A model generated the notes under the pieces. It searched no databases, was not told the origin of the DNA, and saw nothing but the letters and a program-made list of their open reading frames with translations. A stretch of 64,000 nt of DNA from Flavihumibacter petaseus NBRC 106054 (GTDB taxonomy: Bacteria; Bacteroidota; Bacteroidia; Chitinophagales; Chitinophagaceae): assembly GCF_000974785.1 (NCBI RefSeq), contig NZ_BBWV01000001.1, forward strand, positions 1,116,001-1,180,000, given 5' to 3'. Below, in pieces: positions 49,702 to 64,000 of this stretch. How positions within the stretch are numbered: position 1 is the first letter of the stretch; each line of letters begins with the position of its first letter. A program made the position numbers and the translations under genes.

Positions 49702-52700
49702 ATGCCCCTGACCTTACCCTTGAAAAAGTGCATCATTTCATTTATCCTGTTATTTAGCGTCTTTTTTTCCAGCGCTCAAATGCGCCAGGTATTCCTGGAC
49801 AATACTGCACCTGAAAATGAGATTAGAAAGATCAGCTTTTACTCCGCCAGGGAGGGCTATGTGGCCTTCCGTGACTGGATAGGCTTTACCACAGACAGCG
49901 GTCACACTTTTACAAAAAAACCAATCACCCTGTCAAATGTTAACATTAGTGGGTATTCCGTAAACCTCACCTTCGGATTCGGAATTTCCGGCGTAAAAGC
50001 ATTTGACAAGAACACCTTGCTGGCATGGGGCCATTATGGGCTCGTCCCTGCCATTCTTAGTTCAACAGACGGCGGCAACAATTTTAAACTGGTTTTTCAT
50101 TCGCAATTTGACCAGATGCAACTCAGGACAGGAGTCACCGACATGATTTTCCCGGAAAATAACAGTGTGGGTTATGCGATAGATGCCGACAGGATCCTGA
50201 AAACAACAGACCGGGGGTTAAACTGGTCAATCGTAAAAACTGAAGCGGATAGCTATTTCGATTTTCTTGAAGCTCCCGACAACAACAACGTCTTTGCGGG
50301 CAGTCGCGACTATAAGGCCAACAAACTGGTCAGAACAGCAGACGGTGGCAGCAGCTGGCAGCAAGTGACCTATCCTGTCGCTGGTGGCAAAATGCAATAT
50401 GCCTGTTTCCTGAATCCCTCCACAGGCTGGATGAGCATTCGTGATGACCGTTACGCTTATTTCTATGCCACCACCAATGGCGGAAGCAGCTGGACCTTAT
50501 TGAATGACCGCGAGGCTACTCCTTTTGCAACCAGCCGGATGCGATTTACTGATGCCAATACCGGGTATGCGTTCTCCGGACAAAATACTGTATTCAAAAC
50601 AACTGACGGGGGCATTACCTGGGAACCCCTGCCACGAGACAATGCCTTCGCCTATCTTGGCTATTCACACAACGACCTTCATTTTCTTAACAACAATCAG
50701 TTTTGGGCAGGTGGAGGCCACGGGCTGCTCGAACTCAGTACCAACAGCGGAGGTACACCTCTGGCAAAGTCCTATTTCAAAATTGATACTGCCGGTCTGT
50801 CGGCAACAGGAATCGTTAACCTGAAAAACTACTCCCGAAGCAGCTATACCTTTAAATGGCTGGTGAACGAAAAATCATCCGGAACTTCCTATCATTCTTC
50901 CTATACACCGGATTTTACCGATCTGACCGATACCATAAAGCTGATTGTAACGAATGGCAGCAGTTCAGATACTACTGTAAAGTATGTACAGTTTTATCCG
51001 CAGGTTATTGTTTCCGCCTTCAGCCCGTCGTCAGGCAAAACCGGTGCACCGGTAACCATTACTGGCAAAAATTTCGATAACGTTACTGCTGTTACGTTTG
51101 GCGGCGAGCGTGCAGGCTTTTCCGTACTGTCGCCAACAACCATTCTTGCAACGGTTGGCCAGGGAGCATCAGGGAAAGTGACTGTATATACCCGGACCGG
51201 TTCCGGATCACTGGCCGGGTTCACCTACCTGCCGCCACCTGCAATCAGCGCTTTTTCACCCTTGTCGGCAACAGCAGGAACAGCGATTACCATTACCGGA
51301 ACAAATTTCAACGATGTTACCACAGTCACCATTGGCAATGTTCCGGCAACATTTACAGTCGTCTCCTCCACCACAATCAACGCAATAGCGCCGTCTTCCG
51401 GATCGGGTGATGTTACCGTCGTCACTACAGGCGGAAGCGCTTCTCAGGCTGGATTTGTTTCCATCCCCACTATCGTTTCCTTTACACCGATCAAAGGAAC
51501 CGAAGGAACCATTATGACCATAACGGGAACATCATTTACCGGTACTACATCAGTCAGCATTGGAAATAAACCGGCGCTTTCTTTTACTGTCCAGTCCTCA
51601 ACTACCATAACTGCAATAGTTGGTGCAGAGGCGACAGGGAGCGTTAAGGTGACCTCCCCCGGGGGCAATTCCATATTACCGGGGTTCACCTGGTATCCTA
51701 ATCCGGTAATCAGTTCCTTTTCACCAATGTCCGGTCCGGTTGGAACTTCCATTACCATTCTGGGCTCGAACTTCCACGCCACACCATCTCAAAACGTTGT
51801 TTACTTCGGTTCCATACGGGCAACCATTACCAGTGGCACAACTACCTCACTAACGGTCAAAGTTCCGGTTGGAGCAAGTTTCGAACCCATCAATGTACTC
51901 AGCAACAACCTGCGTGCCTGTTCCGCTACGCCGTTCCTGGTTACCTTTCCAAATGGGGGAAGCATCACTGGCAATTCCTTTGCCGACTCTGCTGTGGTCA
52001 ATACTTCCCCGGACTATTATCCCCAAAAATTACAGGTGGGAGATGTAGATGGCGATGGCAAACTGGACCTGGTGGTATCCGCGTATGGAAACCTTATCAC
52101 GGACAATGGCATTTTCATTTATCGCAATACTGGTACGGCTACCACTGTAAGTTTCGGAAAACCATTGTTCCTCCCCCTGGAAGCACCGGATGCTATTTCC
52201 CTGGGTGATTTGGATGGCGACGGCAAACCTGAGCTGGCAGCAACCAATGACACCACTATTAATATTTACCGGAACCTGTCCACAACAGGCAATCTGGCGA
52301 TGGCCCCGCCAACCATGTTACCTTCAGCAAACGGGCTAAGCGGTATAATCATGGGTGATGTTGACGGTGATGGTAAACCAGATATTGCAACCTGTTATTT
52401 CCACCAATATGGCACTTCGATCTATCGGAATACCAGTGAACCGGGAAACATTTTATTTGCCACCCCGATGGAAATAGCTGCACCAGGAGGGAGAAATATA
52501 TTACTGACTGATCTGACCGGCGACAACAAACCCGAACTTGTAGTACCTCAGGCAACAGACACAAAGCTTTATGTAGTCACCAACAAGTCTGTTAAGGGCC
52601 AGGTTAAATTTGATACTCCGGTTACTTACGCGGGATACACACTTTCTTATGCTGCTGCCGCTGATATGGATGGCGATGGACGCACAGACATCGTTATGGG

Positions 52701-55700
52701 TGACTATTGGGCATCCCGGATGGTTGTGCGCCGGAATATGGGAGCCGGTGTTTTGGCTGATCCGGTTCAATTTGACGCCACCTCGAGCCCTTCAGGTATT
52801 GCACTTGCAGATCTCGACGGCGATGGAAAACCTGATATTGCGACGGGACTTTGGAACGCCAACCGTGGTGTTTTCAAAAACCTGAGTGAGCCCGGCGACA
52901 TCAGCCTGGCAACTAAACTGAACTACGGTAACCCAACAAATCCCGGAGAACACATGATTGCTATCGGAGATTTCAATGAAGATGGCAAAAGCGACATCGT
53001 TGACTGCTCCGGGGGCAACCAATCAATATCCATTCACTTCAATAGCACAAAGGCCGAACCTTTTGTGCAGTCCTTTACTCCTGCAATTGGTAAAAAGGGA
53101 ACTTCAGTTACCATAACTGGTTATAATTTTTCAGGAGTCAATTCGGTTAAATTTGGCGGCGTTTCAGCTGCTTCATTCGTAGTGAATTCATCCACCAGCA
53201 TCACCGCTATTGTTGACAATGGCAGCTCGGGAGAAGTAGCAGTTACCAGCAGCCTGGGTACCGCGGTAAAAGCCGGATTTTCTTTCGGGTTACCACCGGT
53301 AATTTCGTCCTTCACACCGCTATCTGCCAGTACCGGTACAAGCGTTACGATTTCCGGAACAGGGTTCAGCACAACCGCTGCTGATAATATTGTGAACTTC
53401 GGTGGGGTGAAAGCAATCGTAACCGCTGCTTCATCAACATCACTGACAGTTACTGTTCCTGCCGGCGCCTCATACCAACCAATAACCGTAACCTGCAATA
53501 ATCTCATCGCTTACTCATCGGATTGGTTCAGCCCATCTTTCCCCGGTGGCACCACTACCATTACCGCGGCATCCTTTGCAGCTCCTGTAACAGGAATCGG
53601 CGGTTCCGGGTCTTTCTGCGATCTGGATGGCGATGGCAAACTTGATCTGATGATTGCCAACAATAACGATCTTGTCCTTGAGAGAAACCAAAGCTCTCCT
53701 GGTTTCATCAGTTTTGACCAAATGCAGGTTATCCCGGCCGGACTACCAAGAGCAAATCCGGTAGCGGGCGATCTCGATGGCGATGGCCGTCCTGATATCA
53801 TTGGCATCAGTCATGACGGACACAGTTTCGTTGTATTCCGGAACACAAGTAACATTGGCAACATCACTGTAGAAAAAACGATCACTCAAAAGACGGGCGT
53901 TGACAGATCAGACCCAATGGACGGACTCATCCTTGACATCGATCAAGATGGCAAACCCGAGGTTATCGTGGTGAACTATAGTGCGCGAACCCTGTCAGTT
54001 TTCCGTAACCTCAGTACACCCGGCAATATAATGCTGGACAACCGCATTGATTTTGGCTTTTCATACTATCCCACCGGCGTTACCGCCAGGGATGTTGATG
54101 GCGATGGCAAACCAGATATCCTGGTTTCCTCAATTTCAGAAGGTAGCGAAGGAGTGGCAGTATTCCGCAACACCAGTGTTCCGGGCGCCATCAGGTTTGC
54201 CAACAAAGTTGATTATCCGGCGAATGAATGGCCCTCTGGCATCGCTGGTGCCGATTTTGACGGCGACGGGAAAACAGACATTGCCGTTACCAACTTTTCT
54301 TCCAACGACATTTCTATCATCCCCAACAACAGTTCATCCGGCAATATTAATTTCGCTCCCCGCCTGAATTTTCCCACCGGTAAGGGTCCCTGGAATTTTA
54401 CTGCGGGTGACCTTAATGGTGATGGTAAACCAGACCTGGCTACTGCAAACCTATACACCCAAAACATTTCCGTGCTTTGCAACAACAGTACTGCCGGTTC
54501 AATCTCCATGCTTCCCGGGGTAGATCTGCCCATCGGGAGGGATCCAGACAACATTGTCATTGCTGATGTGGATAACGATGGTCGTCCTGATATTGTAACA
54601 GGAGGTGCGGGAATAACTGTTTTCCTCCGTAATATTATTGGAACCGGCATTCCGGTCAGCGTGTGCCCGGGTGCGGATACCAGCATCATTTCCGATATTA
54701 CGGGCACCAGTTACCAATGGCAGCAGAACGACGGAAATGGCTTTGTTGATATCGCAAACGACAGCCATTTTTCAGGATCTTCAACAGCCAGCCTGCACCT
54801 GAAAAACATACCAAAAGCATGGAGCAGTTACCAATACAGGTGTGTTGTCAATGCCATGCAAAACAGCACCGTTTATGTATTGGATATCTCCAGAAACGCA
54901 GTAACGCCTTTCGCCTTTATTTCGACAACAGCAAAAGATATTTGCGCAGGTACTGCTGTTACCTTTAGAGCTGTTTCAGACAACGGGGGAACAAATCCTT
55001 CCTGGCAATGGCAGGTTAACGGAGTCAACACCGGTAGTGATACAAGCATTTTTACAACAACTGCGTTAACCAATAACGCACAAGTCAGGGTTATCATGAC
55101 CAGCAATGCGATATGTGCTGCGCCGGTGATGGACACGAGCAACACCATTGCAATGGTTGTGAATGCAACGGTTGCACCCACTGTTAGTATCGCCTATTCA
55201 CCATCACCAATCTGTACAGGTGCACCGGTAACCTTTACCGCTTCTCCGTCAACTGTCACCGGAACCGAGTCGTACCAATGGAAGAAAAATAACCTTGCGG
55301 TTGGCGGCAATTATGCTACCTACACTGATAATTCGCTTCAAACCGGTGACCTGATCCAGGTGGTCATGAATACGTTATCAACCTGTCTGCCCGGCACACC
55401 GATACTGAGCAATACTATTACTATTGCCCTGGATGCGTCTCCGGTGCCTGCGGTTAACATCACAGGCAGCACAGATGTGGTGGCAGGCAGCACTGTCGTA
55501 GTCACCGCCAATCCGATTAATTGCCAGGGATCGTCCACCTATCAATGGCAAGACAGCACGAAGTCACATGGTTGGCAAAATATCGCCTTTGCAACTACGG
55601 CTGCATGGAACTACCAGCCAATGCAACAGGGTGATAAGCTGCGCATGCTCCTTTCCTGTACATCACCCTGCGGGACGACTTTCATCACAGAAAGCAATGT

Positions 55701-55983
55701 GTTGGTATTTAACCTGCTTTCACTGCAGGCCGGATCTGGCATGATTGCTCCCAATCCTGTTACAAACGGCATGCTGGTAATTGACAGCCTGAATACTCTT
55801 GACGGCTGGCAGACCCTGGACATATTCGACCTGGGCGGAACGCTGCAATTCCACATGAATTTACCACCAGTTTACCCGTCGCGCATCTCTATCCCAATTA
55901 GTAGTTTGCCGCGGGGTAATTATATTGCGCTATTAAGGCGCAACAATGGCCTGCCGTTACGTTTGCGCTTTATTAAACTATAA
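49702..55983 (+). CDS. 2093-residue type IX secreted adhesin-like protein with TIG and FG-GAP repeats
   Basis: Signal peptide about 1-25 (ending FFSSAQ). Order: BNR/YCF48-like propeller repeats (about 60-350: LSSTDGGNNF, KTTDRGLNWS, RTADGGSSWQ, ATTNGGSSWT, KTTDGGITWE), four IPT/TIG domains (about 430-740), FG-GAP/VCBS repeats with DxDxDG calcium motifs (GDVDGDGKLDL, GDLDGDGKPEL; about 760-1110), two more TIG domains (about 1110-1290), more FG-GAP repeats (about 1300-1640), Ig-like modules (about 1660-1990), and a C-terminal type IX sorting domain (APNPVTNGMLVID ... LRLRFIKL). Probably a surface protein binding a ligand through its propellers. Codon repetition makes nearby reading frames look open. 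Single-gene unit, ended by the hairpin at 56041. Confidence 0.93.
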   Translation: MPLTLPLKKCIISFILLFSVFFSSAQMRQVFLDNTAPENEIRKISFYSAREGYVAFRDWIGFTTDSGHTFTKKPITLSNVNISGYSVNLTFGFGISGVKAFDKNTLLAWGHYGLVPAILSSTDGGNNFKLVFHSQFDQMQLRTGVTDMIFPENNSVGYAIDADRILKTTDRGLNWSIVKTEADSYFDFLEAPDNNNVFAGSRDYKANKLVRTADGGSSWQQVTYPVAGGKMQYACFLNPSTGWMSIRDDRYAYFYATTNGGSSWTLLNDREATPFATSRMRFTDANTGYAFSGQNTVFKTTDGGITWEPLPRDNAFAYLGYSHNDLHFLNNNQFWAGGGHGLLELSTNSGGTPLAKSYFKIDTAGLSATGIVNLKNYSRSSYTFKWLVNEKSSGTSYHSSYTPDFTDLTDTIKLIVTNGSSSDTTVKYVQFYPQVIVSAFSPSSGKTGAPVTITGKNFDNVTAVTFGGERAGFSVLSPTTILATVGQGASGKVTVYTRTGSGSLAGFTYLPPPAISAFSPLSATAGTAITITGTNFNDVTTVTIGNVPATFTVVSSTTINAIAPSSGSGDVTVVTTGGSASQAGFVSIPTIVSFTPIKGTEGTIMTITGTSFTGTTSVSIGNKPALSFTVQSSTTITAIVGAEATGSVKVTSPGGNSILPGFTWYPNPVISSFSPMSGPVGTSITILGSNFHATPSQNVVYFGSIRATITSGTTTSLTVKVPVGASFEPINVLSNNLRACSATPFLVTFPNGGSITGNSFADSAVVNTSPDYYPQKLQVGDVDGDGKLDLVVSAYGNLITDNGIFIYRNTGTATTVSFGKPLFLPLEAPDAISLGDLDGDGKPELAATNDTTINIYRNLSTTGNLAMAPPTMLPSANGLSGIIMGDVDGDGKPDIATCYFHQYGTSIYRNTSEPGNILFATPMEIAAPGGRNILLTDLTGDNKPELVVPQATDTKLYVVTNKSVKGQVKFDTPVTYAGYTLSYAAAADMDGDGRTDIVMGDYWASRMVVRRNMGAGVLADPVQFDATSSPSGIALADLDGDGKPDIATGLWNANRGVFKNLSEPGDISLATKLNYGNPTNPGEHMIAIGDFNEDGKSDIVDCSGGNQSISIHFNSTKAEPFVQSFTPAIGKKGTSVTITGYNFSGVNSVKFGGVSAASFVVNSSTSITAIVDNGSSGEVAVTSSLGTAVKAGFSFGLPPVISSFTPLSASTGTSVTISGTGFSTTAADNIVNFGGVKAIVTAASSTSLTVTVPAGASYQPITVTCNNLIAYSSDWFSPSFPGGTTTITAASFAAPVTGIGGSGSFCDLDGDGKLDLMIANNNDLVLERNQSSPGFISFDQMQVIPAGLPRANPVAGDLDGDGRPDIIGISHDGHSFVVFRNTSNIGNITVEKTITQKTGVDRSDPMDGLILDIDQDGKPEVIVVNYSARTLSVFRNLSTPGNIMLDNRIDFGFSYYPTGVTARDVDGDGKPDILVSSISEGSEGVAVFRNTSVPGAIRFANKVDYPANEWPSGIAGADFDGDGKTDIAVTNFSSNDISIIPNNSSSGNINFAPRLNFPTGKGPWNFTAGDLNGDGKPDLATANLYTQNISVLCNNSTAGSISMLPGVDLPIGRDPDNIVIADVDNDGRPDIVTGGAGITVFLRNIIGTGIPVSVCPGADTSIISDITGTSYQWQQNDGNGFVDIANDSHFSGSSTASLHLKNIPKAWSSYQYRCVVNAMQNSTVYVLDISRNAVTPFAFISTTAKDICAGTAVTFRAVSDNGGTNPSWQWQVNGVNTGSDTSIFTTTALTNNAQVRVIMTSNAICAAPVMDTSNTIAMVVNATVAPTVSIAYSPSPICTGAPVTFTASPSTVTGTESYQWKKNNLAVGGNYATYTDNSLQTGDLIQVVMNTLSTCLPGTPILSNTITIALDASPVPAVNITGSTDVVAGSTVVVTANPINCQGSSTYQWQDSTKSHGWQNIAFATTAAWNYQPMQQGDKLRMLLSCTSPCGTTFITESNVLVFNLLSLQAGSGMIAPNPVTNGMLVIDSLNTLDGWQTLDIFDLGGTLQFHMNLPPVYPSRISIPISSLPRGNYIALLRRNNGLPLRLRFIKL

Positions 55984-57066: not shown

Positions 57067-57091
57067 TGAAAACTCCCCTCAATTAGTAGCG
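57067..57091. repeat. IS inverted repeat, right end of element
   Basis: Begins TGAAAACTCCCC and ends GTAGCG; pairs with 58274-58299 with about five mismatches and one gap. Overlaps the transposase stop. Confidence 0.75.
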
Positions 57092-57978
57092 TTTAAAACT
57101 AGGGATTTCCATTCAATTTCACCATCACGCTGGAATGTTGGAAATGAATCGGTTTGTTGATGCTTTTGCAAAAAAGCTACCGGTGGTTGATAGTTCAGGG
57201 ATTGATGTGGCCGTTGATTGTTATAAATCCACATCCAGGAATGGGCCATCATCTGTGCTTCCTTCAGCCGTGTAAATACATATGCATCCAATACTTCTTC
57301 CCTGAAGCTGCGATTGAATCTTTCCATGAACCCGCTCTGGTGGGGCTTTCCTTTTTCTATGAACTTAATATCAATATTTCTTTGGAACGCCCATTGGGCA
57401 AGGGCGTCTGCAATAAATTCGGGGCCATTATCAACCCTGATTTTGGTGGGTTGCCCTCTCCAGGCAATCAGTTGGTCCAATTCCCGTATTACCCGTTTGC
57501 TGGTAAGACTGGTGTCCATGGTGATTGCCAGGGCTTCCCGGTTGTAGTCATCGATAATGTTAAATGACCGAAAGGAAACGCCGTTGTTCAGAGCATCGTG
57601 CATTAAGTCCATGGACCAGGTGATATTTGGATAAATAGGCTGCAATAATGGCTCCATGATCCTTGCCGGTAACCTTTTCTTGCGCTTTCTGCGTAGGTTC
57701 AAGCCCATCTCTGTATAGATCCGGTACACCCGCTTATGGTTCCATAGAAAGTTCAGGTTCCGCAAACGATGATGCATCATCCAGAATCCCCAACGATATT
57801 GATAGCGGCTAATTCTGCAGCTGATCGCGTACTTCCTGATGCTTGTTTGGCTTGGGTTTGTAGTAAAATACTGAGGGTTGTATGCTGAACAACACAGAGG
57901 CCTGCCGCAGACTTAACTTGTGCTCCAGATGAGCAAAGTCTACCAGCTCTCGCTTTTCAGCAGGCCCTAGAGCTTTTT
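57079..57978 (-). pseudogene. IS3 transposase orfB, frameshifted
   Basis: The C-terminal part (57079-57780, continuing back to about 57816) has WSMDLMHDAL, RVDNGPEF and QSGFMERFNRSFREE, the D, D and E of the integrase core, with tail QRPHQSLNYQPPVAFL. The N-terminal part (about 57978-57809) starts in a -1 frame after the orfA slip site and ends at a TAG at 57809. Reading RISRYQYRWGFWMMHH requires a frame change around 57817, so one base was gained or two lost in a CTGCAG context. Inactive unless another frameshift is used or the base is a sequencing error. Confidence 0.8.
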
Positions 57979-58233
57979 TTCAACAACGTCCTTTAAAACG
58001 GTTATTTGAAGCGTCTGTTCGGCTACGATTCTTTTGTACTGGGCAAGTTCCGCTTCCAACTCCTTGAGCTTTTTAAGCTGATTCACTTCAAGGCCAGAAT
58101 ATTTGGTCTTCCAGTTATAAAATGTAGCCTGGTTAATGCCATGTTCCCGACAGATGTCAGCTACAGTTCTACCTGTTTCCTGTTGCTTTAGAATCCCGAT
58201 GATCTGGGATTCTGTAAACTTTGGCTTTTTCAT
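57967..58233 (-). CDS. IS3 transposase orfA (HTH)
   Basis: An 88-residue protein from ATG 58233 (MKKPKFTESQIIGIL), with the IS3-type HTH (VADICREHGINQATFYNWKTKY) and a leucine-zipper-like tail (LKKLKELEAELAQYKRIVAE). At its 3' end an A7G run (57980-57973) is a plausible -1 slip site leading into orfB, which begins in the -1 frame. Confidence 0.88.
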   Translation of the reverse strand: MKKPKFTESQIIGILKQQETGRTVADICREHGINQATFYNWKTKYSGLEVNQLKKLKELEAELAQYKRIVAEQTLQITVLKDVVEKKL

Positions 58234-58273
58234 TTTTCCGACTTTAAAACTACAATTGTTTTCTATTAACAAT

Positions 58274-58961: not shown

Positions 58962-59837
58962 ATGACAGATCTGGACTTGATTATCATGTATTTAGCTGAT
59001 TCAAAAGTCGCCGCCGCTACCGAAATAGGCAAAATTGAATTAATCCAGCACGGAATGACAAATCGAAATTACAAATGCTCTTTAACAACCGGCAGTACAG
59101 TTATTGTTAGAATTCCAGGGAATGCCACCGAAATCCTGGTCAACAGAAATAACGAATTGAGAAACACCCAAATAATACAACAACTAAATATAACGGTTGA
59201 CCATCTATTCTTTGATAACAAATCCGGAATAAAAATTACACGCTACGTAGAGGACAATCGTTCCCACGTGTCAAAACAGGAACAACTAATTAACATCGCA
59301 CGCTTCATTAGAAGACTACATAGCTCCAATATAACATTCAAAAACAATTTTAAACCCTTCACTCTAATCAAGTTTTACCTAACGTCCATTTATGAAAAAT
59401 CTATAACAATAGAAAGCGACTTTGAAAGCATCACTAGTAAGTATTATGCCCACCGAATAAATTCTGAAATACTAAAATACACTAGCACCTGCGCCTGCCA
59501 TAACGACCTGGTGGGTGAAAATTTTATTGTATCCTCTAAAACTGACATATACCTTATTGACTGGGAGTATTCTGGCATGAACAATCCTATCTGGGATCTT
59601 GCATCATACTCACTGGAAAACTCCTTGAGTTATGAAGAAGAAAAGCTGTTTCTAGAAACTTACTATGAATTGACAGCACTTGACACCGCTGTATACCGTT
59701 CTCTAGAATACCTAAAAGCACTACAAGATCTGCTTTGGTATCTTTGGGCGGAATTAAAGACACAATATGGTCAGGATTGTAAACATTATGGATTGACGCG
59801 TTATAACAGAGCTAAACTAAAAATAAATAAACTTTGA
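58962..59837 (+). CDS. Choline/ethanolamine kinase-like phosphotransferase (LicA-like)
   Basis: A 291-residue kinase of the choline-kinase/APH fold. N-lobe with GMTNRNYKCSL (Gly-rich loop); catalytic CHNDLVGENFI with His180, Asp182 and Asn187; metal Asp200 in LIDWEYSG followed by MNNPIWDLASY. No signal peptide. Such enzymes phosphorylate choline, ethanolamine or a similar alcohol; the next gene looks like a cytidylyltransferase and the third like a LicD-type transferase, so a phosphocholine/phosphoethanolamine route is likely. Opposite strand to those genes, convergent with the second. Sequence is A+T-rich. Confidence 0.85.
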   Translation: MTDLDLIIMYLADSKVAAATEIGKIELIQHGMTNRNYKCSLTTGSTVIVRIPGNATEILVNRNNELRNTQIIQQLNITVDHLFFDNKSGIKITRYVEDNRSHVSKQEQLINIARFIRRLHSSNITFKNNFKPFTLIKFYLTSIYEKSITIESDFESITSKYYAHRINSEILKYTSTCACHNDLVGENFIVSSKTDIYLIDWEYSGMNNPIWDLASYSLENSLSYEEEKLFLETYYELTALDTAVYRSLEYLKALQDLLWYLWAELKTQYGQDCKHYGLTRYNRAKLKINKL

Positions 59838-59881: not shown

Positions 59882-60601
59882 TCAAACAACCCCACGAGCC
59901 ACATTCAACTCACTCAAACAATCGATTTCATGCCAGTCGTCAGAGCCAATCTCTTCTAACCTAATTTGAAGTCTATCGAGGTTATTAACGACCAACTGGT
60001 CCCAAAATAACCATCTTTTACTACTATTGTCATCAACCGCAATCTCTTCAATAACAGCATTCAAGGCTGCCTTAATAATCAACGCATCTCGAAAATTCCA
60101 AAAAGAAATACCTGACATTATATACGCTTTGGAACCGATATTCTCACTTTCCAAATTTGTATCCACTATAATTCCCTGAAGTACTTGATCAGTAGAAACA
60201 TCCAATACCCATTCTTTATGAAATCCTGATCTTAATCCAGAAAAATAAGCGGAGTGTTGTAGTCCAGCTTTTAAAATATTCCTATACAAATAAACATCCC
60301 CCTCAAGTACGTAGGAATCTCCAAAATACTCTGCTGCAACATAAAGAGAATAGATATTATTAAATTTGTTAAACTCAGTATTATTAATTAAACAAACACC
60401 ATACCTTCTCTCCAGATAATTGAACTGTTCTTTCAAATATCCGACTACCACATAAATCTCTTCGATTCCGATTTCTTTCAAGTAGCAAATCTGAGTTTCG
60501 ATAATTGGCAACGGACCTACCTTCAATAGGGGCTTAGGAGTCTCCTTAGTAAGGCTATCCATCCTACTTCCTAAGCCAGCTGCCAGAATAATTGCATTCA
60601 T
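59882..60601 (-). CDS. Nucleotidyltransferase, LicC-like CTP:phosphocholine cytidylyltransferase
   Basis: A 239-residue protein from ATG 60601 (MNAIILAAGLGSRM); a TTG two codons earlier is less likely. NTP-transferase signature LAAGLGSRMDSLTKETPKPLLKVG at the N-terminus, with the LGSR nucleotide loop and the later LEGDVYLYRN metal-binding Asp. Length and layout match LicC-type enzymes that make CDP-choline, or sugar-1-phosphate nucleotidyltransferases. Its neighbours favour the choline reading. The gene is convergent with the kinase; a candidate -7 box lies at 60650. Confidence 0.85.
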   Translation of the reverse strand: MNAIILAAGLGSRMDSLTKETPKPLLKVGPLPIIETQICYLKEIGIEEIYVVVGYLKEQFNYLERRYGVCLINNTEFNKFNNIYSLYVAAEYFGDSYVLEGDVYLYRNILKAGLQHSAYFSGLRSGFHKEWVLDVSTDQVLQGIIVDTNLESENIGSKAYIMSGISFWNFRDALIIKAALNAVIEEIAVDDNSSKRWLFWDQLVVNNLDRLQIRLEEIGSDDWHEIDCLSELNVARGVV

Positions 60602-60649
60602 ACGCAAGAATTTTGATTACCATACATTACTAGACCTATTCAGGCTAAA

Positions 60650-60708: not shown

Positions 60709-62361
60709 TTAGGATAATAATATTAGCTCGTCCCAATTCAATAGACTGGAATCCTCACTAAACAGTGACACCAGGCACAAGCCAAAACCAGTAAGACCAC
60801 AATTTAAACCAATCTCACCAAACCCTCCAATACTCTTATAAGGATCTAGCGCTAAAACCCCATTCCGATACAAGAGGTTGTTAATTACTGCATGCAACTT
60901 TTCATATTGCTGTGGAGAAATCTCAAGCACTCTACACAAACGGATACAGGATTGAATTCTGGGTATAACCACAGCTAAGTCTCCAACGCTATTGGAACAA
61001 TTGAAATCCAGGTCAAAAAATCGCTTTCTTACAATTTCCATCTGATCCTCCGCTACAGCCAACGAAAATGAATATAGTACTGGAAAGTCAAACTCAAGGT
61101 CATCTCTAATTAAGCAATCATTTACCTTACTCCTAATAAGACACTCAAACTGACCCAATTGCCATTCTAGCTCTGTCGAAAATATTTTCGACGATCTACA
61201 TTTAAATACAAACAATATCGCCCTTGCAACAAATAAACTACTTTCGCCTTTAAAGTCAGCGCACCCGGAAACCAATCCGGTAAAAACATCAGCTACTCTT
61301 TCGAGTAATAGCGACAAGTGATTTGATAAACAGTCATTCAATTTTGTAGTGATTTTCTCATCGAATGGTTGTTCGTCTAACGATCTATTTATTAGGTATG
61401 AATACGCGCCAATTAAATCAACGAAATCACTCCTGATATCAGAAACTTCTATAAATCGAATAATTACAGAATCATATTTGCTGAGCAACTCAATATCATC
61501 CATGCTAACAAATCCGTTGACACACAAATGATAGGTATAAACGGCATTTGGCACCAATTGAAATAAATTCTCATCAAGTGTTTCAAATAACAACTTACTA
61601 TTTCTTAATAGCAAAAAATTTGAGAAATTGAAATACGACGGCTCAGCAATCGACTCAGCATAGTAATATAAGAATACTATAGCAGGCGGACATCCATCAC
61701 TAACTGACGTATTCAACAAAGGCTTTGCCCTCGTAACAACTATCTCCGAGATAGATTTTAGAAAAACCCTAACATTCTCTTCAAAATTCGCAGGCCCCAA
61801 CATTGTCATATTAGCAATGGACTCGTTGCTAATTATCAAATCCTCAAATAGGATATTCCCTGGATCATTCCAGCAATTCCAATCTGGATTTGAAACCCTA
61901 TAACTCTCACCAAACAAAACTTCACAATAGTCAACACTTCGCTTCAATGCATTGACGGTCACGCCATCGAGAAATACCTTCTCTACTCCCTCCTCAAAAA
62001 TAGATGGTGCATAACCATAAAATCGAACGCGATTCAAAGATTCAGCAAAAACCGTTTCCACAACATAGCCCTTATACCTCGTCAAAAAAAATATATCCAC
62101 CTGGCAATCCAAAATGAGCGTAACCTCGCGAATTTCACCCTTGTATCGCCAAATCTTCACAACCGGTAAACTTTCGATAATCTTCTGTATCAACGATTCA
62201 TCAGCATCCAGAATACCAATATCAATGTCAGGATCATGAGAAATAAATTTAGCACCCCTCACAAACCCCAAGCATGTCCCGCCTATAACAAACCAATCCG
62301 GTACAATAGGATCCAACATTTCTCTAACCCTATTGACAGAACTTCTCAAAATACTATTCAT
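60709..62361 (-). CDS. LicD-like transferase with C-terminal LanC-like extension
   Basis: A 550-residue protein. Residues about 20-180 match the LicD/fukutin fold: GGTCLGFVRGAKFISHDPDIDIGI with Asp43, Asp45 and Asp47, the metal and nucleotide triad of phosphocholine transferases. Residues about 180-550 are helical. The very end, NCGLTGFGLCLVSLF and then LNWDELILLS, resembles the last helix and tail of Bacteroidota LanC-like proteins (the GLxGxG motif and the WDxxLLLS tail), but the classical zinc motif CHG and WC motif are absent. So it may combine phosphocholine transfer with a degenerate cyclase-like domain. It is larger than usual LicD proteins (about 270 residues). Confidence 0.75.
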   Translation of the reverse strand: MNSILRSSVNRVREMLDPIVPDWFVIGGTCLGFVRGAKFISHDPDIDIGILDADESLIQKIIESLPVVKIWRYKGEIREVTLILDCQVDIFFLTRYKGYVVETVFAESLNRVRFYGYAPSIFEEGVEKVFLDGVTVNALKRSVDYCEVLFGESYRVSNPDWNCWNDPGNILFEDLIISNESIANMTMLGPANFEENVRVFLKSISEIVVTRAKPLLNTSVSDGCPPAIVFLYYYAESIAEPSYFNFSNFLLLRNSKLLFETLDENLFQLVPNAVYTYHLCVNGFVSMDDIELLSKYDSVIIRFIEVSDIRSDFVDLIGAYSYLINRSLDEQPFDEKITTKLNDCLSNHLSLLLERVADVFTGLVSGCADFKGESSLFVARAILFVFKCRSSKIFSTELEWQLGQFECLIRSKVNDCLIRDDLEFDFPVLYSFSLAVAEDQMEIVRKRFFDLDFNCSNSVGDLAVVIPRIQSCIRLCRVLEISPQQYEKLHAVINNLLYRNGVLALDPYKSIGGFGEIGLNCGLTGFGLCLVSLFSEDSSLLNWDELILLS

Positions 62362-62484: not shown

Positions 62485-62724
62485 TCAAGAAACACCAGAC
62501 TTCACAAAACCACAAATAAAATACCCTTCTTCCTCATAATAATAACAATTTCGAGATCTACAATACCTAATAACTGCACCCAGTTGTTTCAGAAAGGCAA
62601 TGTAGATATATAGCGTTCGCTCAGAAATCGCAAGTTTTTTCGCCAACTGCTTTGGTGTACCAGTAGATTTTGTCCGAATCAAGAAATCCAATCTAACTAT
62701 CCTATGAATAACCTTTTGTGACAT
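62485..62724 (-). CDS. Small helix-turn-helix DNA-binding protein
   Basis: A 79-residue protein from ATG 62724 (MSQKVIHRIVRLDFLI); a longer frame to 62775 overlaps the glycosyltransferase gene. HTH: GTPKQLAKKLAISERTLYIYIAFLKQLG, then YYYEEEGYFICGFV. Similar small HTH proteins are found next to peptide natural-product and glycosyltransferase genes in Bacteroidota, an association recalled, not tested. It may regulate the island. The gap 62362-62484 holds no convincing short ORF. Confidence 0.75.
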   Translation of the reverse strand: MSQKVIHRIVRLDFLIRTKSTGTPKQLAKKLAISERTLYIYIAFLKQLGAVIRYCRSRNCYYYEEEGYFICGFVKSGVS

Positions 62725-62752
62725 ACGAGGAAATATGTTAGAAACCCTATAG

Positions 62753-64000
62753 TCATTTTTCAATAAGACGGTCAATCAACTGCAAATAAGAATCTCCCAT
62801 AAGCTGACTTGTGAACAAACTCCTAGCCCTAGTGATGCCCGTATCAGTAAGGCGTTTTGAAAGGTTACTATCCTTCAATAGCCGGTCAATACGTACAGTA
62901 ATCTCTACGGGCTTCAACGTACGCTCACCCTTGTCATCGTGAGAAACGGGTATCATCAAACAATCAATCCCGTCGTCAAACATCTCCTGCAAACCATCTA
63001 CAGCTGAAACGACTAATGGTATTGACCAAAACCGCATTTCAATAGCACTAAAACTGCACTGCTCCATTAAGGATGGCAATACACCAACATCTGCAATAGC
63101 ATACCATTTCTGCAGAAGTTCCCGAGAAATCTTATCAGTAAGAACAATTCGACTCCAAACTGGCTCAGCGCTCCGCAGCACTTCTCCCAAACTACCCATC
63201 CCAATCAATACCAATCTACTATCCGGCCAATCTTTCAAAAGAGACCTAAAAGCTTCAACAAGAAAAAAGACACCCTTATTAGCGACTACTCGACCCGAAA
63301 ACAATACAATCTTCTCCCTTTCACCAATCCCAAATTCCTTTCTGATTGCAATCTTATCATACTTTACAAATTCCGGTTCTGCAATTCCATTGTATACAAT
63401 ATTCAATTTTTCTTCATCAACCCCTAATACACCTTTAAAGAATTCCTTTGCACAATTCGTAACTGTAACTACACCATCTGCAGCCTCAACCATTGCAAGC
63501 TGGTACTCCGTCTTAAAAAATGCCTCTGGGCAAAAAGATACATTTCTGTCTTTCCATTCTTGTGCAAAAACCGAATCTTCTACCTTAATGCAATCTTTCC
63601 AAGACCATCCATGATGAACATAAACTACAGTGCATTTAAAGAAATCCTTTACCTGTTTCACCAGGCTCAATTCTGAAATAGAGTTAAACAAAAAAACCAA
63701 ATTCTCTTTCGTTGCCAGTATTGGATAAATTACTTGGAGAATTCTTTTCCCAAGGACAGTTGTAATGTTATCAACACTGGCAGAAAGGAATAAACCATTG
63801 CCTGGACATGGAATATGTACGTAGTGCAGCCGGTCATTGTCAAATCTCTTTACTTCAGGATATTTGCGGCATTCTGTAACAATAATCGTTACCTCAATGT
63901 CCTCCTGCCTGCCAAAAATCGCCAATAATTCATCAGTATGGGCCCCTAGTCCGAAAAATCCTTGCATTTGATCGCTACAGAACAAAACAATGTTCTTCAT
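62753..64000 (-). CDS. GT4-family glycosyltransferase
   Basis: A 415-residue enzyme whose ATG is the last three bases of the window (63998-64000), so the gene appears complete. GT-B fold: N-terminal Rossmann-like domain opening MKNIVLFCSDQMQGFFGLG, then VLFSGRVVANKGVFFLVEAFRSLL, and the nucleotide-sugar-binding segment PSLMEQCSFSAIEMRFW with Glu residues of the E(x7)E motif. Resembles glycosyltransferases of Bacteroidota peptide-modification clusters (those annotated as CFB rSAM/SPASM-associated), though this is not proven. The acceptor could be a glycan, lipid or peptide. Confidence 0.88.
   Translation of the reverse strand: MKNIVLFCSDQMQGFFGLGAHTDELLAIFGRQEDIEVTIIVTECRKYPEVKRFDNDRLHYVHIPCPGNGLFLSASVDNITTVLGKRILQVIYPILATKENLVFLFNSISELSLVKQVKDFFKCTVVYVHHGWSWKDCIKVEDSVFAQEWKDRNVSFCPEAFFKTEYQLAMVEAADGVVTVTNCAKEFFKGVLGVDEEKLNIVYNGIAEPEFVKYDKIAIRKEFGIGEREKIVLFSGRVVANKGVFFLVEAFRSLLKDWPDSRLVLIGMGSLGEVLRSAEPVWSRIVLTDKISRELLQKWYAIADVGVLPSLMEQCSFSAIEMRFWSIPLVVSAVDGLQEMFDDGIDCLMIPVSHDDKGERTLKPVEITVRIDRLLKDSNLSKRLTDTGITRARSLFTSQLMGDSYLQLIDRLIEK

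What the first reader, a model, noticed from the sequence alone, without database searches (positions are those of the whole stretch)
60709..62361. LicD-type phosphocholine transferase joined to a LanC-like tail
The N-terminal part carries the LicD/fukutin Asp triad (DPDIDIG) while the remaining 370 residues are unlike LicD and end in motifs reminiscent of Bacteroidota LanC-like proteins (GLTGFG, WDELILLS). Seen: both motif sets in one frame of 550 residues. Known: LicD moves phosphocholine onto glycans; LanC-like domains act on peptides. Inferred: the protein may put phosphocholine on a peptide or may use the helical domain to recognise its acceptor. I know of no described enzyme of this build.
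Basis: partly seen in the sequence, partly recalled or inferred. Interest (0 to 1): 0.75.

Follow-up and report, generated by a model that had tools for sequence, protein, structure and literature searches.

The report
LicD-like transferase with LanC-like tail
A Bacteroidia genome encodes one protein that joins an enzyme part predicted to attach phosphocholine to a ring-shaped part related to peptide-modifying proteins, in a gene cluster that seems to decorate a small secreted peptide.

The parts
60709..62361 (-). LicD-like / LanC-like fusion protein, 550 aa
   Evidence: ORF; domains
61867..62361 (-). N-terminal LicD/fukutin-type transferase domain, residues 1-165 (SHDPDIDIG 41-49; QVDIFFL 87-93)
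   Evidence: Foldseek FKRP 6kal prob 0.97 but E 0.093
60709..61866 (-). C-terminal LanC-like all-helical domain, residues 166-550 (toroid proper about 190-550), without zinc motifs
   Evidence: single-sequence model inconclusive
59882..60607 (-). LicC-like CTP:phosphocholine cytidylyltransferase, 241 aa
   Evidence: best PDB hit 1jyk, CTP:phosphocholine cytidylyltransferase, E 1.3e-46 over residues 2-233
58962..59837 (+). LicA-like choline kinase, 291 aa, convergent with the operon
   Evidence: best PDB hit 4r77 choline kinase E 5.7e-45; PF01633 E 1.8e-20
62485..62775 (-). small HTH_11 protein, 96 aa, between glycosyltransferase and fusion gene
   Evidence: PF08279 E 1.7e-7
62753..64000 (-). 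TIGR04157-like GT4 glycosyltransferase; 418 aa, runs 9 bases beyond the window (to 64009)
   Evidence: (TIGR04157 250.2 bits, E 3.6e-74; below the family cut-off of 400)

Best explanation
The protein is a phosphocholine transferase that carries its own acceptor-docking module. Proposed pathway: the LicA-like kinase makes phosphocholine and the LicC-like enzyme turns it into CDP-choline. The LicD-type domain then moves phosphocholine from CDP-choline to a hydroxyl of an acceptor. The LanC-like toroid, which lacks the zinc motifs and so should not form lanthionine, binds the acceptor. The likeliest acceptor is the cluster's secreted six-cysteine peptide after the TIGR04157-like glycosyltransferase has put a sugar on it, so phosphocholine would sit on the sugar rather than directly on the peptide. 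Shown by computation: the single frame, the two domain homologies, the LicA/LicC-like neighbours, the peptide cluster, and the recurrent fusion of LanC-like domains to glycan enzymes. Inferred: substrate, docking role, order of steps, export.
Confidence: 0.5

Rival explanations
1. The LicD-LanC protein puts phosphocholine directly on a Ser/Thr of the precursor peptide, with no sugar in between.
For: LanC-like domains are peptide enzymes in lanthipeptide systems (recalled); the peptide has many Thr/Ser.
Against: A glycosyltransferase is part of the same cluster, LicD enzymes are known to work on glycans (recalled), and the other LanC fusions scanned carry sugar or sulfate transferase domains.
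Confidence: 0.2
2. The enzyme decorates an ordinary cell-surface glycan (LPS or capsule) with phosphocholine and only happens to lie beside the peptide cluster; the LanC-like tail is a glycan-binding toroid.
For: Well-studied LicD enzymes act on surface glycans (recalled). Fernandez-Cantos et al. 2023 (PMC10352776, passages) suggested that Bacteroidales LanC-likes without zinc residues may resemble endoglucanases.
Confidence: 0.22
3. The donor is not CDP-choline but another CDP-alkanolamine or aminoalkyl phosphonate, so the added group is not phosphocholine.
For: In the split system L095 the nucleotidyltransferase is fused to an aminotransferase, which points to another donor there. The kinase also scores with guanitoxin kinase GntI, 141 bits, far below that family's cut-off of 357.
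Against: In the window the best solved relatives of both donor enzymes are choline enzymes.
Confidence: 0.15
4. The tail is an unrelated helical domain and the LanC likeness is chance or convergent.
For: No Pfam LanC hit, no PDB sequence hit, single-sequence model inconclusive, BLAST against the own LanC-like neighbour at best E 0.11.
Against: Three profiles, colinear segments, 0 of 500 shuffles as good for each profile, and adjacency of LicD and LanC-like genes in L095.
Confidence: 0.07

Closest known systems
LicD family phosphocholine transferases (PF04991) with LicA and LicC (lic pathway of Haemophilus and pneumococcus, recalled)
   Same: LicD-type Asp motif; LicA- and LicC-like neighbours whose best solved relatives are choline kinase and CTP:phosphocholine cytidylyltransferase.
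   Different: Pfam cut-off missed; 550 aa, where 149 of 150 LicD frames copied from the listing of a LicD-rich family have 251-377 aa; carries a LanC-like tail; sits beside a peptide cluster.
LanC lanthionine cyclases (NisC, MadC) and LanC-like domains of LanM/LanL
   Same: Colinear profile matches and toroid in the relatives-aided model.
   Different: No zinc motifs; no LanB among the 10 cluster ORFs scanned; fused to a LicD-type transferase.
LanC-like proteins without zinc residues in Bacteroidales RiPP clusters (Fernandez-Cantos et al. 2023, PMC10352776; outline, abstract and eight passages seen)
   Same: LanC-like proteins that lack the C-CH motif, near CAZymes, rSAM enzymes and double-glycine peptides.
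   Different: LicD and phosphocholine occur 0 times in its main text; the passages seen mention no LanC-transferase fusion and suggest endoglucanase-like proteins.
TIGR04157 glycosyltransferases and TIGR04149 rSAM-modified RiPPs
   Same: Own GT matches TIGR04157 along its length (E 3.6e-74); the L095 cluster with LicD and LanC-like half holds both families over their cut-offs.
   Different: Own GT is below the TIGR04157 cut-off (250 against 400 bits); own peptide has no NCBIfam or Pfam match and starts like a Sec signal peptide (by eye).
PntC-type nucleotidyltransferase-aminotransferase fusion (6pd1, listed)
   Same: Nucleotidyltransferase fused to an aminotransferase, as in L095:15527-17329.
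   Different: The window's LicC-like protein has no aminotransferase and is far closer to 1jyk.

Membership tests
LicD family (PF04991) | Pfam gathering score 22.6 bits | tested here: not met
   17.8 bits, E 0.0038; 19.8 bits in the genome search
LicD family (PF04991) | Conserved G-T-x-L-G-x-x-R ... D-x-D-x-D motif region | tested here: met
   GGTCLGFVR 27-35, SHDPDIDIG 41-49; local LicD profile 33.3 bits against best shuffle 6.6 of 500
LicD family (PF04991) | CDP-choline-making partners in the locus | tested here: met
   LicC-like E 1.3e-46 and LicA-like E 5.7e-45 to solved choline enzymes; a choline permease (LicB) was not looked for
LicD family (PF04991) | Phosphocholine transfer activity | not testable with these tools
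   needs an enzyme assay
LanC lanthionine cyclase (PF05147) | Zinc ligands Cys ... Cys-His (WCxG, CHGxxG; motif form recalled) | tested here: not met
   neither motif in the fusion; CHGxxG in 19 of 30 PF05147 frames of the own family
LanC lanthionine cyclase (PF05147) | Sequence relation to LanC-like proteins | tested here: met
   three local profiles above 500 of 500 shuffles; but no Pfam LANC_like hit
LanC lanthionine cyclase (PF05147) | (alpha/alpha) toroid fold | tested here: inconclusive
LanC lanthionine cyclase (PF05147) | LanB dehydratase in the cluster | tested here: not met
   none among the 10 cluster ORFs scanned; the rest of the genome was not searched for it
TIGR04157 glycosyltransferase (neighbour) | curated cut-off 400 bits | tested here: not met
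   250.2 bits over residues 5-408

The most novel reading that the evidence does not exclude
Bacteroidota run a class of decorated secreted peptides in which a zinc-less LanC-like toroid has become a docking module that tethers decorating enzymes (GT4, GT2, GT8, GT11, GT6+GT11, Glyco_transf_7C, sulfotransferase and, here, LicD) to one peptide. The window's branch would yield a phosphocholine-bearing (glyco)peptide, a kind of product that I did not meet in the searches (mostly listings).
Probability: 0.35. Interest if true: 0.87.

Novelty: new variant of a known kind. Interest (0 to 1): 0.66.

Why it matters
LanC-like proteins without the zinc site occur in Bacteroidota peptide clusters without a known job; published mining noted them and suggested endoglucanase-like proteins (PMC10352776, passages). 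The window fusion, its split counterpart and the LanC-like fusions to other glycan enzymes give one testable idea: the toroid holds the acceptor peptide for the attached transferase. If right, it would explain an orphan group of proteins, give a handle on a hidden class of decorated peptides in Bacteroidota, and place phosphocholine, a group read by host immune proteins (recalled), on a secreted peptide.

Tried and rejected
Lanthionine cyclase activity: rejected for lack of zinc motifs. LicD with a commonly occurring tail: not seen. The listing was cut; of 150 frames copied from it (251-524 aa) one exceeds 400 aa, and the 340 aa after its first start codon hold no LanC match. In the own bacterial family LicD was found in 1 of 98 genomes, the own. 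Anti-phage defence: no PADLOC match for four cluster proteins. Phage origin: two PHROGs matches at E 0.18; in viral contigs 2 stretches matched a pattern and neither encoded a relative. BLAST of the fusion against its LanC-like neighbour: best E 0.11. hhalign of the tail alone against the LanC-like alignment: probability 74.6, E 2.6e-5, one comparison. Single-sequence fold of the tail: importin-like repeats first in Foldseek and no LanC among the 50 rows shown; MadC second in the VIA look. In the first LicD profile one row (L151) was a wrong frame; I removed it, and dropped 5 of the other 32 rows that lacked the Asp motif. The LanC profiles: 'lan' holds 21 proteins from the family search (9 of 30 picks left out, 8 for length and the own gene, which came in from L002), the own LanC-like neighbour and L010's; 'gtlan' (23) and 'gthalf' (32) hold cluster LanC-likes of 160-410 aa after removal of duplicates (55 of 61). 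The window fusion and the 12 other fusions were in none of them. My label 'GT2-type' by eye for the gene beside the GT in L075-L077 and L095 was wrong: Pfam says Glyco_transf_7C. Literature: searches were listings, some cut; one paper holds both 'LicD' and 'lanthionine synthetase' (PMC12754561, a Lactobacillus study, not read). Only PMC10352776 (outline, abstract, eight passages) and PMC7268733 (12 passages) were opened.

Full report
Observation. The 550-aa frame at 60709-62361 is uninterrupted and on the minus strand. It lies in a 2.3-Mb contig of a 5.7-Mb genome held as 99.74% complete.

N-terminal domain. Pfam gives LicD at E 0.0038 for residues 23-64, under its cut-off. In 395 genomes of the phylum the only other matches (2 genomes, E 0.001-0.005) are plain LicD-like proteins of about 200 aa beside a nucleotidyltransferase-like frame. 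A profile of 27 LicD-like proteins from fetched loci scores the domain 33.3 bits (E 1.1e-9); the best of 500 shuffles has 6.6. Foldseek lists FKRP, a fukutin-related enzyme, with probability 0.97 but E 0.093. So LicD/fukutin-type is well supported for about residues 22-61, while the rest of the domain is divergent.

Neighbourhood. Downstream on the same strand is a LicC-like protein (best solved relative 1jyk, CTP:phosphocholine cytidylyltransferase, E 1.3e-46). Convergent to it is a choline kinase-like protein (4r77, E 5.7e-45). Upstream on the minus strand and beyond the window edge (window coordinate = L002 coordinate + 56000) are an HTH gene, the TIGR04157-like GT (to 64009), a LanC-like protein (64093-65178, Pfam LANC_like E 2.9e-6, over cut-off), a protein with a weak AhpC-TSA match (65266-65895, E 0.0014, below cut-off), a six-bladed propeller (65892-67082, DUF5128 E 9.8e-22) and a 94-aa peptide with six cysteines and a signal-like start (67155-67439; no family match). 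Divergent HlyD, AcrB-type and outer-membrane efflux genes follow. The stretch from 58 kb on has G+C 0.35-0.39, against 0.44-0.51 at 45-56 kb, with transposase and integrase-core frames at 57079-58272; LicD is found in no other of the 98 family genomes searched. This suits lateral gain.

Relatives. As a fusion the protein was found only in its own genome among 196 relatives, 395 of the phylum and 156 of the order (overlapping draws). These are tblastn searches with one sequence, of the same kind, did not see the LicD of L095, so distant relatives could be missed. A scan of the genome-contig collection with the GT alignment gave 47 loci. The nearest, a Chitinophagaceae MAG (L075), has the same peptide (43 of 52 residues compared), a propeller, a TIGR04157-like GT (251 bits) and efflux-like genes, with a Glyco_transf_7C gene before the GT. 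Pedobacter sp. Hv1 and Chitinophaga hostae have a LanC-like gene, a Glyco_transf_7C gene and the GT. None of these three shows a LicD-profile match in the fetched stretch, a match to the fusion in the genome or a LicC-like match in the genome. The own cluster has LicD-LanC and LicC where they have the Glyco_transf_7C gene, though not at the same place.

Split version and other fusions. In a Bacteroides MAG (L095) a nucleotidyltransferase-aminotransferase gene, a clear LicD (E 1.2e-31), a half-length LanC-like gene (overlapping it in my ORF picks) and a Glyco_transf_7C gene follow one another. The same stretch holds a TIGR04149 RiPP precursor (41.8 bits, cut-off 25), a TIGR04157 GT (546 bits, cut-off 400), two radical SAM genes, and a GT8 fused to a LanC-like half. 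Among the ORFs of the 63 neighbourhoods and the own one, the LicD profile finds L095 and the window fusion. Of 60 loci 48 hold a LanC-like domain in the fetched stretch, and 10 hold fusions of LanC-like domains to glycan enzymes, 12 proteins in all. Four are TIGR04157-type GTs. Pfam on the other eight: GT6+GT11+LanC (LANC_like E 1.7e-7, over cut-off), GT11+LanC and GT8+LanC (LANC_like E 0.004 and 0.006, below cut-off), and five GT2-containing proteins whose LanC part only the local profiles see, two of them with Glyco_transf_7C and one of these also with a sulfotransferase domain. Shuffled copies of 570 ORFs gave no match better than E 0.1.

Reading. The LanC-like module travels with, and is fused to, enzymes that put sugars, sulfate or phosphocholine on something, in clusters that where read in detail hold a small secreted peptide. 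The economical explanation is that the toroid, which cyclises peptides in its catalytic relatives, here only holds the peptide or glycopeptide for the attached transferase. In the window the attached activity is, by homology and partners, phosphocholine transfer. Known LicD enzymes act on sugars (recalled), so the sugar set by the TIGR04157-like GT is the likeliest acceptor. None of this is shown by experiment.

Known and new. Bacteroidales LanC-likes without zinc residues beside CAZymes have been reported (PMC10352776, abstract and passages). I met no report of LanC-like fusions to LicD or to glycosyltransferases in the searches, which cover open-access PubMed Central papers and were seen mostly as listings. 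The parts are known kinds; the join, and the docking idea that it suggests, are new as far as these searches reach.

Noticed in passing
L090:4569-6857; L096:4727-6361; L096:6386-9082; L095:8164-9510; L083:3509-5542: LanC-like domains fused to GT6+GT11, GT11, GT2+Glyco_transf_7C+sulfotransferase, GT8 and GT2+Glyco_transf_7C in Bacteroidota clusters.
   Followed up: partly
L095:15527-17329: Nucleotidyltransferase fused to a class I/II aminotransferase directly upstream of LicD: an unknown nucleotide-linked donor.
   Followed up: no
L002:11155-11439 (window 67155-67439) and L075:2077-2388: Six-cysteine signal-like peptides, 43 of 52 compared residues identical although the GTs beside them are 55% identical; both hold NFT and NCT triplets.
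   Followed up: partly
57079-58272: Transposase (HTH_Tnp_1) and integrase-core frames, IS3-like by layout, at the border between the G+C-richer chromosome and the low-G+C cluster.
   Followed up: partly
49702-55983: 2093-aa protein of FG-GAP and IPT/TIG repeats with a signal-like start, probably exported.
   Followed up: partly
L002:17519-17749 and window 62485-62775: Two small HTH_11 proteins, alike by eye, flank the peptide/efflux cluster.
   Followed up: no
L059:5140-6510: A stretch that reads as N in one fetched genome between two half-length LanC-like/GT units; left alone.
   Followed up: no
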